Assembly (NCBI RefSeq): GCF_013041615.1
Contig: NZ_JABEPQ010000005.1
Span: forward strand, 231,924-295,923
Reading direction: 5' to 3'
Origin: Knoellia koreensis
Lineage (GTDB): Bacteria; Actinomycetota; Actinomycetes; Actinomycetales; Dermatophilaceae
DNA length: 64,000 nt
Below the pieces are notes generated by a model. It ran no database searches. It saw nothing but the letters and a program-made list of their open reading frames with translations, and had not been told where the DNA came from. Positions 144 to 62,334 of the stretch are shown piece after piece (positions within the stretch are counted from its first letter, which is position 1; each line of letters starts with the position of its first letter). A program made the position numbers and the translations under genes.

Positions 144-2714
144 ATGGCCACCTTCCTCTACCGGCTCGGGCGCCTCACCGCCCGCCACGCCTGGCGCACC
201 ATCGCCGTCTGGGCCCTGGTCCTCGGCGTCCTCGGCGGCCTCATGGCTGCGTTCTCCACGCCCCCGACCTCGCAGATCACGATCCCGGGCGCGCAGTTCC
301 AGCAGGTCATCGACGACCTCGGCCAGGAGATCCCCGCCAGCTCAGGCGGCATCGCGACCATCACGATCGAGAACGAGCGCGCTGGCGCCTTCACCCCGGC
401 CCAACGCACGGCCATCGACCAGACCCTCGCGCAGTGGGAGAAGGCCCCGCACGTCCAGTCGGTCATGAACCCCTTCGAGCAGCAGGCCCGCCTCGACGAC
501 GGCGCCGCCAAGGTCCGCGACGGGCAGGCGCAGATCGACAAGCAGCAGGCCGAGCTCGACAAGGGCCACGACTTCCTGCGCCTCGCCACCCGGGACCTCG
601 CGACCGCGCGCGCCGACCTCGCCGAGCTCGAGCGCGCCGGGCAGGGCGACAGCGCCAAGGCCCAGGAGCTGCGCGCCCAGATCCCCAACCGGGCCCAGGG
701 CAACGCCGACCTCAAGGCGCAGCTCGACTCCGGTGACGCGAAGATCGCGCAGGCCCGCGCCCAGGTGCAGCAGGGCCAGCGCATGCTCGACCTGAGCGAC
801 GGCCTGCGCTTCGTGAGCAAGGACGGCAGCACCGCCATGCTGCAGATCCAGTTCGACCAGTCGGTGTCGCAGCTGTCCCCCGAGGTGCGTGCCCACGTCC
901 CCGAGATCGGCGCGGCCCTGGCCGACGACGGTGTCCGGGTCGACTACAACGCCGACATCCTGCAGACCCGCAGCCTCATCGGGGTCGGGGAGATCGTCGG
1001 GTTCGTCATCGCCGGCATCGTGCTGCTGCTCATGCTCGGCACCCTCGTCGCCGCCGGCCTCCCCCTGCTGGTCGGCCTCGTCGGGGTCGGCGTCGGCATC
1101 GTCGGCGCGATGGCGGCCACCGCGTTCTTCGACATGAACTCGATGACGCCCGCACTCGCCCTCATGCTCGGCCTCGCCGTCGGCATCGACTACGCCCTCT
1201 TCATCGTCAACCGGCACCGCCAGCAGCTCCTCGGCGGTGTCGAGCTCCAGCACTCGATCGGACTCGCCACCGGCACGGCCGGCAACGCGGTCGTCGTCGC
1301 CGGCACCACCGTGGTCATCGCCCTCGCCGCCCTCACCGTGTCCGGCCTGCCGATCCTCGCCCAGATGGGTCTCGTGGCCGCCGGCACCGTCGTCGCCACC
1401 GTCCTCGTCGCCATCACCCTGACGCCGGCCGTCCTGAGCCTGATGGGTCGCCGCGTGCTGTCCAAGCGCGCCTGGGCCAAGGCCGGGTATGCCGCGGACG
1501 GCGGCAAGCACGCCGGGTCACCTCGCGCACGGGGTCGGTGGGTCGAGGTCGTCACCGACCGCCCATGGCTGGCCATCGTCGGCACCGTTGCGCTGATCGC
1601 CCTCCTGGCGCTGCCCGCCCTGTCGCTGCGGCTCGGCCTGCCTGACGGCAGCAGCGAACCCAAGGACTCCAGCGCTTTCCACTCCTACGTCACCATCGAG
1701 GACAATTTCGGTCCCGGAGCCAACGGTCCGATCGTCGCCGTCGTCAGCCTCGACGACCCGATCAGCCAGGCCGAGGTCACGCCCACGCAGCTGCGTGTGG
1801 GCGAGCAGCTCGCCGACCTTGACGGCGTCCGGCAGGTGGTGCCGTTCGGCGTGAGCGCGGACCGCGACACCCTCGCCTTCCAGGTCGTCCCCACCGAGGG
1901 ACCCACCTCGCAACGCACCGTCGACCTCGTGCACAACCTCGACGAGCTCGGCTCCGACCTGGGCCAGGGCGAGAGCCTCGGCATCACCGGCCAGACGGTG
2001 GCGAACATCGAGATCTCCGAACGCCTCGCGAGCGCCCTGCCGCTCTACGTGCTGCTCGTCGTCGGGCTGTCGCTGCTGCTGCTCATGGCGGTGTTCCGGT
2101 CGGTGCTGGTGCCGCTCGTCGCAACCGGCGGGTTCCTGCTGTCGGTGGCGGCCGCCTTCGGCGCCGTGGTCGCGGTCTACCAGTGGGGCTGGCTCGGCGA
2201 CCTGCTCGGCGTCAGCCGACCCGGCCCGATCATGCCGTTCTTCCCGACGCTGCTCATCGGCGTGCTGTTCGGCCTGGCGATGGACTACCAGATGTTCCTC
2301 GTCTCGGGCATGCACGAGGCACGAGCCCATGGGGAGGAGTCGCGGCGTGCCGTCCGCACCGGGTTCCGGCAGGGCTACAAGGTCGTCGTCGCGGCCGCCG
2401 CGATCATGATCTCGGTCTTCGCAGGCTTCGTCTTCGCCCACCTCACCATGATCCGGCCCATCGGACTGGGCCTCGCGATCGGTGTGGCGGTCGACGCCTT
2501 CCTCGTGCGAATGACGTTGATACCAGCGGTGATGCACCTGCTCGGCGACAAGGCGTGGTGGATCCCCCGGTGGCTCGACCGGCTCCTGCCGAACCTCGAC
2601 ATCGAGGGCACCGGCCTCACCCGCCACCTCGCCCGCACCGAGTCCGAGCGCGGCGACGACAGCGAAGGCGAGCCCGCCACGGCCGGCGACCGGCCGGCAT
2701 ACGAAACCGTCTGA
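144..2714 (+). CDS. MMPL/RND-family membrane transporter
   Basis: 856-residue membrane exporter of the MmpL/YdfJ type, expected to use the proton gradient to move lipids, drugs or other hydrophobic substrates out of the cell. One membrane helix (about 16-36) is followed by an exported domain containing a Glu/Gln/Ala-rich coiled coil (about 105-215). A block of five helices follows (about 280-435, including GLAVGIDYALFIVNRHR), then a cytoplasmic linker, a helix near 475-493, a second exported loop and five more helices (about 632-800, including GLAMDYQMFLV). The two GID/AMDY segments are the duplicated MMPL signatures carrying the Asp of the proton relay. Length is normal for the single-polypeptide actinobacterial form. 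It follows the preceding gene by 3 bases and a strong dyad stands downstream. Substrate unknown. Confidence 0.93.
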   Translation: MATFLYRLGRLTARHAWRTIAVWALVLGVLGGLMAAFSTPPTSQITIPGAQFQQVIDDLGQEIPASSGGIATITIENERAGAFTPAQRTAIDQTLAQWEKAPHVQSVMNPFEQQARLDDGAAKVRDGQAQIDKQQAELDKGHDFLRLATRDLATARADLAELERAGQGDSAKAQELRAQIPNRAQGNADLKAQLDSGDAKIAQARAQVQQGQRMLDLSDGLRFVSKDGSTAMLQIQFDQSVSQLSPEVRAHVPEIGAALADDGVRVDYNADILQTRSLIGVGEIVGFVIAGIVLLLMLGTLVAAGLPLLVGLVGVGVGIVGAMAATAFFDMNSMTPALALMLGLAVGIDYALFIVNRHRQQLLGGVELQHSIGLATGTAGNAVVVAGTTVVIALAALTVSGLPILAQMGLVAAGTVVATVLVAITLTPAVLSLMGRRVLSKRAWAKAGYAADGGKHAGSPRARGRWVEVVTDRPWLAIVGTVALIALLALPALSLRLGLPDGSSEPKDSSAFHSYVTIEDNFGPGANGPIVAVVSLDDPISQAEVTPTQLRVGEQLADLDGVRQVVPFGVSADRDTLAFQVVPTEGPTSQRTVDLVHNLDELGSDLGQGESLGITGQTVANIEISERLASALPLYVLLVVGLSLLLLMAVFRSVLVPLVATGGFLLSVAAAFGAVVAVYQWGWLGDLLGVSRPGPIMPFFPTLLIGVLFGLAMDYQMFLVSGMHEARAHGEESRRAVRTGFRQGYKVVVAAAAIMISVFAGFVFAHLTMIRPIGLGLAIGVAVDAFLVRMTLIPAVMHLLGDKAWWIPRWLDRLLPNLDIEGTGLTRHLARTESERGDDSEGEPATAGDRPAYETV

Positions 2715-2732
2715 GGCCGTCCGCCACGCACG

Positions 2733-2777
2733 GCGACGCCCGCCGACTGGGAGGGGATCTCGGTCGGCGGGCGTCGC
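2733..2777. terminator. Strong hairpin between convergent genes
   Basis: A perfect 15-bp inverted repeat (GCGACGCCCGCCGAC at 2733-2747 pairing with 2763-2777) around a 15-base loop separates the convergent MMPL and universal stress genes. It has no U-tract, as is usual in high-G+C actinobacteria, and probably ends transcription from both sides. Confidence 0.75.
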
Positions 2778-2784
2778 TGTCTGG

Positions 2785-61659: not shown

Positions 61660-61660
61660 C

Positions 61661-62314
61661 ATGGCCTGGAACCGTGACGAGATGGCGGCACGCGCCGCGC
61701 AGGAGCTGCGCGACGGCGAGTACGTCAACCTCGGGATCGGCCTGCCAACACTGATCCCGGACCACCTGCCCGAGGGGTCGAGCGTCACCCTCCACGCGGA
61801 GAACGGGATTCTCGGCGTCGGGCCATTTCCCTATGAGGACGAGGTGGATCCGGACCTCATCAACGCCGGCAAGCAGACCGTGACGGTGCTGCCGGGAGCG
61901 TCCTACTTCGACTCGCCGACGAGCTTCGCGATGATCCGCGGTGGGCACATCGACACGGCTGTCCTCGGGGGAATGCAGGTGTCGGCCACCGGCGACCTCG
62001 CCAACTGGATGGTGCCCGGTGCCATGGTCAAGGGCATGGGCGGTGCGATGGACCTCGTGAGCGGCGCCGGCCGCGTGATCGTGCTGATGGAGCACACGAC
62101 CCGCAAGGGCGAACCCAAGCTGGTGGAGGCGTGCTCGCTGCCGCTCACCGGGCGCGCGGTGGTCTCCCGGGTGATCACCGACCTGGGTGTCTTCGACGTC
62201 GCCGGTACAGGGTTTGCCGTGGCCGATCTTGCCCCCGCGGTGACGCTCGAGCAGGTGCGCGCCGCGACCGGCGCGCCCCTACTGGAAGCCGACCACGCGG
62301 CATACCCCGTGTGA
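61661..62314 (+). CDS. pcaJ: 3-oxoadipate:succinyl-CoA transferase, subunit B
   Basis: 217-residue beta subunit. VNLGIGLPTLIPDHLPEGSSVTLHAENGILGVGPFPYEDE contains the catalytic Glu in ENGILG; GGMQVSATGDLANWMVPGAMVKGMGGAMDLVSGA is also typical. It begins one base after the pcaI stop. The last codons (DHAAYPV) run into a paired GTATGCCG hairpin. Confidence 0.93.
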   Translation: MAWNRDEMAARAAQELRDGEYVNLGIGLPTLIPDHLPEGSSVTLHAENGILGVGPFPYEDEVDPDLINAGKQTVTVLPGASYFDSPTSFAMIRGGHIDTAVLGGMQVSATGDLANWMVPGAMVKGMGGAMDLVSGAGRVIVLMEHTTRKGEPKLVEACSLPLTGRAVVSRVITDLGVFDVAGTGFAVADLAPAVTLEQVRAATGAPLLEADHAAYPV

Positions 62315-62334
62315 GTGAGGGCGGGTATGCCGCG
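62296..62334. terminator. Inverted pair of GTATGCCG motifs after pcaJ
   Basis: CGCGGCATACC (62296-62306) pairs perfectly with GGTATGCCGCG (62324-62334) around 17 bases that include the pcaJ stop. A terminator role is likely. Confidence 0.75.

What the first reader, a model, noticed from the sequence alone, without database searches (positions are those of the whole stretch)
1487..62334. A highly iterated octamer, GTATGCCG, about once per kilobase: a candidate DNA uptake or genome-signature sequence in an actinobacterium
Seen: about 66 exact copies in 64 kb, 36 forward and 30 reverse, evenly scattered through genes of unrelated function and through intergenic DNA. Extended context often reads GGGTATGCCGCGTGG. 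With roughly 72% G+C, base composition predicts only about two copies on both strands. In genes it is placed in every frame (TAT-GCC as Tyr-Ala, ATG-CCG as Met-Pro, GGC-ATA as Gly-Ile, CGG-CAT as Arg-His) and forces TAT and ATA codons that are otherwise rare here, so codon preference does not explain it. Known parallels: Neisseria DUS and Haemophilus USS have similar density, both orientations and inverted pairs at terminators; cyanobacterial HIP1 is iterated but palindromic. Inference: it marks self-DNA for uptake, or serves a restriction, methylation, repair or recombination system. I know of no described uptake sequence in this group.
Basis: partly seen in the sequence, partly recalled or inferred. 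Interest (0 to 1): 0.93.

Follow-up and report, generated by a model that had tools for sequence, protein, structure and literature searches.

The report
Actinobacterial DNA uptake signal, strand-alternating
An eight-letter DNA word, repeated about once per thousand bases and tending to alternate in direction along this bacterium's chromosome, and found at varying density in many relatives, is likely a "self" tag for taking up DNA from relatives through hair-like pili, a kind of tag reported so far only in two Gram-negative families.

Summary
GTATGCCG occurs 66 times in the window (shuffle mean 0.98) and 3,986 times in the 4.28 Mb genome (reversed word 114). Of 186 family genomes, 119 (34 of 53 genera) carry at least 45 copies per Mb; 22 genomes of 19 other families reach at most 62. 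Sites stay at orthologous positions in motif-bearing relatives above control in most comparisons. They make up 60% of sampled TAT and 61% of ATA codons and are scarce in mobile DNA. New: same-orientation copies avoid each other within about 1 kb (0.39 of expectation), opposite ones do not (1.02).

Best reading, inferred: an independently evolved DNA uptake sequence working through ComEA/ComEC and two Flp/Tad pilus clusters resembling those Micrococcus luteus needs for transformation, read in an orientation-dependent way. RecBCD-Chi and C5 methylation fail as general causes.

Not shown: uptake and receptor. Com and Tad genes also occur in many motif-free relatives, so the competence link is only suggestive (TadF loss versus motif absence, p = 0.004, uncorrected for ancestry).

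The parts
1487..1494 (+). GTATGCCG copy 1
2695..2702 (-). copy 2
3573..3580 (-). copy 3
4805..4812 (+). copy 4
5963..5970 (+). copy 5
7220..7227 (+). copy 6
8050..8057 (-). copy 7
8485..8492 (+). copy 8
9025..9032 (-). copy 9
10515..10522 (-). copy 10
10945..10952 (+). copy 11
11965..11972 (+). copy 12
13157..13164 (-). copy 13
13431..13438 (+). copy 14
14355..14362 (+). copy 15
15776..15783 (-). copy 16
16587..16594 (+). copy 17
19429..19436 (+). copy 18
20012..20019 (-). copy 19
20607..20614 (+). copy 20
22971..22978 (-). copy 21
23086..23093 (+). copy 22
24358..24365 (+). copy 23
24869..24876 (+). copy 24
25036..25043 (-). copy 25
25790..25797 (-). copy 26
25890..25897 (+). copy 27
26786..26793 (+). 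copy 28
26950..26957 (-). copy 29
28518..28525 (+). copy 30, left arm of hairpin 28518-28547
28540..28547 (-). copy 31, right arm of hairpin 28518-28547 (MFE -37 kcal/mol, z -5.6)
29713..29720 (+). copy 32
30508..30515 (-). copy 33
31267..31274 (-). copy 34
31676..31683 (-). copy 35, arm of inverted pair 31676-31693 (weak fold, z -1.5)
31686..31693 (+). copy 36, arm of inverted pair 31676-31693
32178..32185 (+). copy 37
34689..34696 (-). copy 38
35710..35717 (+). copy 39
36551..36558 (-). copy 40
37493..37500 (+). copy 41
39427..39434 (-). copy 42, arm of inverted pair 39427-39459
39452..39459 (+). copy 43, arm of inverted pair 39427-39459
40416..40423 (-). copy 44
42771..42778 (+). copy 45
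43231..43238 (-). copy 46
43942..43949 (-). copy 47, arm of inverted pair 43942-43976
43969..43976 (+). copy 48, arm of inverted pair 43942-43976
46500..46507 (-). copy 49
48335..48342 (+). copy 50
48437..48444 (-). copy 51
49635..49642 (+). copy 52
49796..49803 (-). copy 53
52615..52622 (+). copy 54
53182..53189 (-). copy 55
55077..55084 (+). copy 56
55287..55294 (+). copy 57
55403..55410 (-). copy 58
56485..56492 (-). copy 59
57660..57667 (+). copy 60
58576..58583 (+). copy 61
59159..59166 (+). copy 62
60546..60553 (-). copy 63
60619..60626 (+). copy 64
62298..62305 (-). copy 65, arm of inverted pair 62298-62332
62325..62332 (+). copy 66, arm of inverted pair 62298-62332 (MFE -31.1 kcal/mol, z -3.4)

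Best explanation
GTATGCCG is likely a DNA uptake sequence: competent cells are predicted to take up relatives' DNA preferentially when it carries the word, through a Flp/Tad competence pilus and ComEA/ComEC, and recombination of that DNA would spread the word through the core chromosome. The strand-specific spacing suggests that recognition is polar: one copy per orientation per roughly 1 kb suffices, and a second copy in the same orientation adds little, as if orientation sets which strand, or which direction, of a roughly kb-sized imported stretch benefits. Shown: the enrichment, its family-wide and patchy distribution, site conservation above control in most comparisons, inverted close pairs, scarcity in mobile-looking DNA, same-orientation exclusion, and the presence of comEA, comEC and two Tad clusters. 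Inferred: that the cells are competent, that uptake is biased by the word, that the receptor is a Tad minor pilin or ComEA-side protein, and that polarity causes the exclusion.
For: (1) 3,986 copies, 0.93 per kb, 1,983/2,003 by strand, near the one copy per kb and lack of orientation bias reported for USS and DUS (PMC1626085, passages). (2) No strand bias over 35 core loci (334/354 pooled; chi2 11.0, df 35). (3) All 25 neighbouring pairs within 40 bp in those loci are inverted; seven of eight folded pairs form strong hairpins; close USS pairs act as terminators in H. influenzae (PMC7811141, passages). (4) 688 copies in 730.5 kb of core loci against 7 in 82.1 kb of five mobile-looking loci. (5) Sites of G000 are kept in 26 of 42, 11 of 19, 11 of 20, 10 of 23, 13 of 21 and 16 of 23 alignable places in six same-genus genomes (G001-G005, G008), against 0.23-0.28 for octamers of the same composition; over all 21 genomes compared, poor ones included, 132 of 313 against 4,993 of 22,669 (Fisher p 2.9e-15, pairs not independent); in ten motif-free genomes 0 of 58. 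(6) Genus-specific flanks and a relaxed position 6 look like dialects. (7) G000 has comEA-comEC and two Tad clusters whose gene order and pilin N-termini, compared by eye, resemble the tad-1 and tad-2 clusters that M. luteus needs for transformation (PMC4322843 sections 7-8 read; PMC6370729 passages). (8) Same-orientation pairs at 40-800 bp occur at 0.39 of expectation, opposite ones at 1.02; the deficit recurs in same-genus sisters and other genera. (9) tad-1 TadF has no match in 11 of 61 motif-poor against 4 of 101 motif-bearing good genomes (p = 0.0043); the six genera wholly without a match are all motif-poor.
Against: ComEC is found in 180 of 186 family genomes regardless of motif. All seven tad-1 genes have a match in each of the 7 motif-free genomes examined (TadG of G019 only at E 0.006). 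Three motif-dense genomes (G027, G118, G161) lack a TadF match. Of three motif-free species in otherwise motif-rich genera, two (G065, G151) have matches to all seven tad-1 genes. Sites are poorly kept in four low-density sisters (24 of 80, at control level in G010) and in motif-bearing G025 and G031 (1 of 18). In 14 Com/Tad proteins only 3 alignment columns, all in the tad-2 helicase, separate motif-bearing from motif-free genomes, against 1 each in the controls LeuS and LexA. Singly mismatched words are not over-represented in G000 (463 observed, 462.7 expected), unlike H. influenzae and N. gonorrhoeae (PMC1939737, passages), although they are 2.1-2.3-fold in G013, G014 and G021. Nothing I saw shows natural transformation in this organism. 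TadF losses are not phylogenetically independent (G016 and G024 are sisters). The orientation effect was noticed in the G000 data before it was tested on the other genomes.
Confidence: 0.66

Rival explanations
1. The word is a Chi-like recombination signal that acts on a helicase-nuclease other than RecBCD, for example an AdnAB-type enzyme. Chi is orientation-dependent, so one copy per strand per kb could also produce same-orientation exclusion.
For: Orientation-specific exclusion within about 1 kb; octamer length; conservation of sites. RecC is present in G000 itself and in motif-bearing G021, G029 and G035.
Against: RecC (PF04257) has no match in all ten same-genus sisters and in 11 of 14 other motif-bearing family genomes searched, so RecBCD is not the general cause. 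No strand skew in core loci. Ten motif-free genera show no comparable replacement word in 30-40 kb each, so the function seems dispensable. AdnAB was not searched; that Chi sites are usually leading-strand biased is recalled.
Confidence: 0.13
2. The word is maintained by a chromosome-organising or segregation protein that binds it once per strand per kb.
For: More even spacing on each strand than random (same-strand spacing CV 0.66); scarce on mobile-looking DNA.
Against: No strand polarity within loci, unlike KOPS (recalled); background levels in single species of rich genera (G065, G127, G151) would mean loss of a chromosome-wide function; genus-specific flanks.
Confidence: 0.08
3. A methylation and mismatch-repair process of the kind proposed for HIP1 creates and keeps the word without selection.
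For: HIP words co-occur with methyltransferases (PMC4390886, passages); GTACGCCG, one C-to-T change away, is a frequent state at the aligned places in motif-free relatives. C5 methylases are present in 13 of 25 motif-bearing family genomes, G000 included.
Against: The word is not palindromic. C5 methylases (PF00145) have no match in 12 of those 25 genomes (G003, G004, G005, G007, G009, G013, G015, G017, G022, G025, G031, G032). GTACGCCG is little depleted in G000 (52 against 63.3 expected). I would not expect repair to give same-orientation exclusion or inverted pairs. N6/N4 methylases were not searched.
Confidence: 0.05
4. Transcription-termination hairpins or a mobile repeat seeded the word.
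For: 25 of 25 pairs within 40 bp are inverted and seven of eight folded well.
Against: Those pairs are 50 of 688 copies; most copies lie inside predicted genes (539 of 688); beyond a short flank no longer repeat unit is shared.
Confidence: 0.03

Closest known systems
DNA uptake sequence (DUS) of Neisseriaceae, read by the minor pilin ComP
   Same: Short non-palindromic word, about 1 per kb, both orientations, close inverted pairs, dialects between species, restricted to one family (PMC5031613, PMC12616744, PMC1626085, passages). The AT-DUS ATGCCGTCTGAA shares the six letters ATGCCG with this word, probably by coincidence.
   Different: Different word; monoderm actinobacterium (inferred from the nearest named LeuS matches); PilM absent from 34 of 36 and the MshEN domain of PilB from 33 of 36 family genomes searched; no ComP-like receptor identified; strand-specific exclusion, which I did not see described for DUS in the passages read.
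Uptake signal sequence (USS) of Pasteurellaceae
   Same: Density, lack of orientation bias, more regular spacing than random, inverted pairs acting as terminators (PMC1626085, PMC7811141, passages).
   Different: Different word and flanks. In H. influenzae USS orientation had no effect on uptake (PMC1939737, passages), whereas spacing here depends on orientation. Singly mismatched words are over-represented there, not in G000.
Micrococcus luteus Flp/Tad-dependent natural transformation
   Same: comEA/comEC plus tad-1 and tad-2 clusters with TadE/TadF minor pilins.
   Different: No uptake-sequence passage was found in that paper (0 occurrences of three phrases in its main text); the M. luteus genome was not examined here.
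HIP1 of cyanobacteria
   Same: Highly iterated octamer over a whole bacterial group.
   Different: HIP1 is palindromic and tied to methylases (PMC4390886, passages).
Chi sites
   Same: Octamer, over-represented, orientation-dependent function (recalled).
   Different: No strand skew in core loci, no RecC in 21 of 25 motif-bearing family genomes, 27-fold enrichment over composition.

Membership tests
DNA uptake sequence (DUS/USS kind) | Short non-palindromic word at about 1 per kb genome-wide, far above Markov expectation | tested here: met
   3,986 in 4.28 Mb against 114 for the control word; 688 against 8.4 in 730.5 kb
DNA uptake sequence (DUS/USS kind) | Both orientations, no strand bias along the chromosome | tested here: met
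   1,983/2,003; 334/354 over 35 loci; replication arms not mapped
DNA uptake sequence (DUS/USS kind) | Close copies form inverted pairs | tested here: met
   25 of 25 within 40 bp
DNA uptake sequence (DUS/USS kind) | Core-genome property, scarce in recently acquired DNA | tested here: met
   7 in 82.1 kb against 688 in 730.5 kb; the five loci were set apart after their low counts were seen, then by gene content
DNA uptake sequence (DUS/USS kind) | Restricted to a clade, with dialects | tested here: met
   119 of 186 family genomes at 45 per Mb or more; 22 genomes of 19 other families at most 62 per Mb; flank and position-6 variants
DNA uptake sequence (DUS/USS kind) | Competence and pilus genes present | tested here: met
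   comEA/comEC, two Tad clusters; presence of genes only, not function
DNA uptake sequence (DUS/USS kind) | Word lost where competence is lost | tested here: inconclusive
   TadF loss enriched in motif-poor genomes, p = 0.0043; G127 tadC interrupted; but matching genes in many motif-free genomes
DNA uptake sequence (DUS/USS kind) | Singly mismatched words over-represented | tested here: inconclusive
   Not in G000 (463 against 462.7); 2.1-2.3-fold in G013, G014, G021
DNA uptake sequence (DUS/USS kind) | Sequence-specific receptor | tested here: inconclusive
   None found
DNA uptake sequence (DUS/USS kind) | Word-bearing DNA is taken up preferentially | not testable with these tools
   needs competition assays
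Neisseria DUS / Pasteurellaceae USS themselves | The word ATGCCGTCTGAA or AAGTGCGGT | tested here: not met
   The enriched word is GTATGCCG, with CGTGG on its 3' side in intergenic copies
RecBCD Chi site | RecBCD present in genomes carrying the site | tested here: not met
   PF04257 without a match in 21 of 25 motif-bearing family genomes, G001-G010 among them; present in G000, G021, G029, G035
HIP1-like iterated palindrome | Palindromic word | tested here: not met
   GTATGCCG is not its own reverse complement
HIP1-like iterated palindrome | Cognate methylase co-extensive with the word | tested here: inconclusive
   C5 methylases only: no match in 12 of 25 motif-bearing family genomes; N6/N4 methylases not tested
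FtsK-orienting KOPS | Strong strand polarity from origin to terminus | tested here: not met
   No strand excess in any of the window and loci (p at least 0.22), nor pooled over 35 loci; definition recalled

The most novel reading that the evidence does not exclude
A third, independently evolved self-DNA uptake code, the first in Gram-positive bacteria. It works through Flp/Tad pili rather than type IV pili. It is read with polarity, so each DNA strand carries its own ladder of tags about 2 kb apart, and two tags of the same orientation within 1 kb are redundant.
Probability: 0.5. Interest if true: 0.93.

Novelty: new variant of a known kind. Interest (0 to 1): 0.86.

Why it matters
[quoted passage not shown] A Gram-positive case would show that such codes evolve with quite different pili, and would give an outside comparison for what they are for. 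The strand-specific spacing offers a genome-scale ruler for the length and polarity of imported DNA, testable without first knowing the receptor. Genomes that lack the word inside word-rich genera (G065, G127, G151) are natural experiments for finding the receptor.

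Tried and rejected
Receptor by gene presence: PilM and MshEN-PilB are absent from most family members, so not classical type IV pili. 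Using G000 genes as queries, comEC neighbourhoods (29 genomes), tad-2 neighbourhoods (21 genomes) and tad-1 clusters (20 genomes) showed no gene present across the motif-bearing genera and absent from the motif-free ones; a few genes are confined to G000's own genus or nearly so. Genes absent from G000 could not be found this way. Column-by-column comparison of 14 Com/Tad proteins and two controls gave 3 columns in the tad-2 helicase and 1 in each control.

Replacement dialects in motif-free genera: ten genera with 30-40 kb each gave no word as strongly iterated; weaker GTACGCCG/GGCGTACGCC signals in G033 and G034 may be codon bias. G127 (60 kb) likewise.

A plasmid search with 24 kb of the window gave only places of 60-80% identity covering at most 10%. 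From recall the family looks like GTDB Dermatophilaceae; no call shows it.

Rejected: deamination of a methylated GTACGCCG (source word little depleted); RecBCD-Chi as general cause; KOPS. The exact 31-base hairpin has no match in viral contigs.

Literature (open-licence library only): DNA uptake sequence + Actinobacteria + two more terms, 0 papers; uptake signal sequence + Actinobacteria + natural transformation, 1 paper, a review of pathogen genomes seen in listing only; a three-of-four-term search, 19 papers of which 15 listed; iterated-word terms, 4 papers. None of the listed titles or abstract beginnings describes an actinobacterial uptake sequence. One search did not isolate the question (1,579 papers, none of the 10 listed holds the family name). 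The bare word gave 643 papers, of which 20 were listed and none is about uptake by title or abstract beginning.

Full report
Observation. The window holds 66 exact copies of GTATGCCG, 36 forward and 30 reverse; 100 dinucleotide shuffles average 0.98. It is the window's most over-represented octamer. The assembly G000 (4,282,418 bases, 15 contigs) holds 1,983 forward and 2,003 reverse copies, the word read backwards 54 and 60. I sampled 40 loci of G000, window included (812,634 bases; short contigs that came back withheld are not counted). Setting aside five mobile-looking loci leaves 35 loci and 730,503 bases with 688 copies, against 25.4 from base composition and 8.4 from an order-5 model of motif-masked DNA. 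The five loci were first noticed by their low counts and then judged by gene content: a catabolic operon beside a transposase piece, plasmid ParA and SSB genes, insertion-sequence genes, element-like DNA with its own Tad genes. They hold 7 copies in 82,131 bases.

Anatomy. In predicted genes the density is 0.83 per kb, between them 1.89 per kb (a simple gene caller of my own). Copies read in all six frames, mostly as Tyr-Ala (238 of 529) or x-Ala-Tyr on the other strand (152). Intergenic copies show a longer consensus, G-GTATGCCG-CGTGGTC; coding copies keep only parts of it. Single-mismatch words sum to expectation in G000 (463 observed; 462.7 expected with an order-4 model; somewhat fewer than an order-5 model; 0.68 of a base-composition figure, as for the reversed control word). 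So the core is sharply defined there.

Orientation. No locus shows significant strand bias. The per-locus strand counts of the 35 core loci are in fact too even (chi2 11.0 on 35 degrees of freedom). I noticed this in the pair table and then tested it. The reason is alternation. Of 655 neighbouring pairs 453 are inverted, against 339 +/- 12.6 in 2,000 label shuffles with a maximum of 383. Pair correlation shows where this comes from. Same-orientation pairs are at 0.00 of expectation within 40 bp, 0.29 at 40-100, 0.27 at 100-200, 0.34 at 200-400, 0.48 at 400-600, 0.44 at 600-800, 0.79 at 800-1000, 0.89 at 1000-1500 and about 1 beyond. Opposite pairs scatter between 0.83 and 1.39 except for an excess of hairpins within 40 bp (25 against 10.9). 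The pattern recurs in stretches of six same-genus genomes (117 of 187 inverted, shuffle 97.5 +/- 6.6) and of ten genomes of other genera (203 of 323, 165.1 +/- 8.3); in four low-density same-genus genomes the data are too few to decide (33 of 52, 26.9 +/- 3.4). As control I ran all 204 non-palindromic octamers with 250-1,200 copies; this set includes the motif itself. Their median same-to-opposite ratio is 1.16. The three lowest are the motif and two words that overlap it; the fourth is an unrelated word at about 0.55, the fifth again overlaps the motif. The exclusion holds between sites in one gene (49 same, 115 opposite) and in different genes or intergenic DNA (50, 145), so it is not a coding effect. 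In the window alone 46 of 65 neighbours are inverted (0.00055 of shuffles).

Hairpins. All 25 pairs within 40 bp in the core loci are inverted. Of eight I folded (the five window pairs and three others), seven have z-scores from -3.2 to -6.2 and one (31668-31701) -1.5; the three from outside the window were cut a base or more short on one side. This resembles the opposed USS pairs that act as terminators in H. influenzae (PMC7811141, passages); terminator function was not tested.

Distribution. In 58 relatives the word is high in all ten same-genus genomes and in many, not all, of 25 other genera of the family. The 22 genomes of 19 other families reach at most 62 copies per Mb (G054, where the reversed control is higher than the word); a few low-count ones are up to about 3.6-fold over the control (for example G039, 29 against 8). 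Family-wide, 119 of 186 genomes in 34 of 53 genera have at least 45 copies per Mb; 105 have at least 150; the highest has 1,356. Four genera are mixed; in three of them, g50, g26 and g68, a single genome (G065, G127, G151) is at background among rich sisters. A tree of 29 family genomes from LeuS, ComEC, LexA, TadA and the helicase, with gaps, puts motif-bearing and motif-free genera side by side in both main groups, which fits early presence with repeated loss; several deep nodes are weakly supported. In ten motif-bearing genomes the same octamer is among the top three words, with genus-specific flanks, for example CCGTATGCCGCT in G025 and G031. In G013, G014 and G021 the sixth position is relaxed (GTATGNCG) and single-mismatch words are 2.1-2.3-fold.

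Conservation of sites. Aligning 60 kb around comEC, G000 sites are kept in 26 of 42 alignable places in G001 (80% identical DNA) against 0.28 for octamers of the same composition; other rich same-genus genomes give 0.43-0.70. Low-density sisters G006, G007, G009 and G010 keep 6 of 18, 8 of 22, 5 of 21 and 5 of 19, and hold more single-mismatch remnants (5-8 each against 0-4). Among other motif-bearing genera G013, G014, G017, G021, G027 and G032 keep 20 of 41 (controls 0.13-0.20), but G025 and G031 keep 1 of 18. Motif-free G011, G019 and G034 keep 0 of 26, where controls are 0.16-0.20; in ten motif-free genomes together 0 of 58. Changed sites there often read GTACGCCG, the ordinary Tyr-Ala codons.

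Machinery. G000 carries comEA and comEC side by side. It has several Tad clusters. One (L149) reads tadA-tadB-tadC-flp-tadE-tadF-tadG; another (L147) lies beside a DEAH-type helicase and has Flp and TadE2-like pilins (names by family search, resemblance and recall). These resemble tad-1 and tad-2 of M. luteus, both needed for its transformation (PMC4322843 sections 7 and 8 read; pilin N-termini in PMC6370729 passages). PilM has a match in 2 of 36 family genomes, the MshEN domain of PilB in 3 of 36. ComEC is in 180 of 186 genomes. A TIGR03819-type Tad ATPase is in 183 of 186 at E 1e-60. tad-1 TadF is found in 165 of 186. Among the 162 good genomes it is missing in 11 of 61 motif-poor and 4 of 101 motif-bearing ones (p = 0.0043), and the six genera wholly without it are all motif-poor (hypergeometric 0.0012); neither figure corrects for shared ancestry. 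In motif-free G127 an element of about 37 kb, with a serine recombinase, type I restriction genes and transposases (named from their sequences by eye), sits inside tad-1 tadC, and ComEC matches fall in two frames; its sisters G035 and G128 have matches to all seven tad-1 genes. The insertion may be a consequence rather than a cause of lost competence. Against this, G065 and G151 have all seven tad-1 genes, so do seven motif-free genera, and G027, G118 and G161 are motif-dense without a TadF match.

Mechanism. Biased uptake followed by recombination would enrich a word in core DNA, in both orientations, away from mobile DNA, with loss by drift once the bias stops. That is what is seen. The new element is polarity: if each site serves only one strand or one direction of about a kb, drive for a further same-orientation site nearby vanishes while opposite sites are independent. 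H. influenzae uptake is reported not to depend on USS orientation (PMC1939737, passages). N. gonorrhoeae shows some strand preference with single-stranded DNA (PMC12061091, passages). A Chi-like signal for another nuclease could also give polarity; I rank it second. RecC has no match in 21 of 25 motif-bearing family genomes, C5 methylases none in 12 of 25.

Novelty. [quoted passage not shown] My searches listed no actinobacterial case in the open library, which omits most subscription papers; one search did not bear on it. I file it as working like a DNA uptake sequence, as a new variant of that kind, not as a member of DUS or USS themselves.

Noticed in passing
   Followed up: partly
L151 and L164 (G000): Two further Tad-like clusters lie on motif-poor, element-like DNA (4 and 3 copies in 20 kb each), besides those on the core chromosome.
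   Followed up: no
L020 (G000 contig C2, 12.5 kb): Aromatic-ring dioxygenase-like operon next to a transposase piece, without a single copy of the word: probably recent acquisition.
   Followed up: no
L147:6992-8676 (G000): Two genes (336 and 210 aa, the first cation-efflux-like) sit inside the tad-2 cluster between tadC and flp; tblastn found neither in the 20 other tad-2 neighbourhoods fetched.
   Followed up: no
G004, L173-L174: ComEC matches in two frames in a genome still dense in the word (2,537 copies): recent frameshift or sequencing error.
   Followed up: partly
G013, G014, G021 loci: Relaxed sixth position, GTATGNCG, with 2.1-2.3-fold excess of single-mismatch words: an apparent looser dialect.
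   Followed up: partly
L123-L124 (G034): The palindrome GGCGTACGCC is counted 12 times over both strands against 0.4 expected in 40 kb of a motif-free genus.
   Followed up: no
G000:C10:305703-306716: RecC is present in G000 but has no match in its ten same-genus relatives searched.
   Followed up: no
window, all copies: The word shares ATGCCG with the Neisseria AT-DUS ATGCCGTCTGAA; probably coincidence, but worth remembering when receptors are compared.
   Followed up: no
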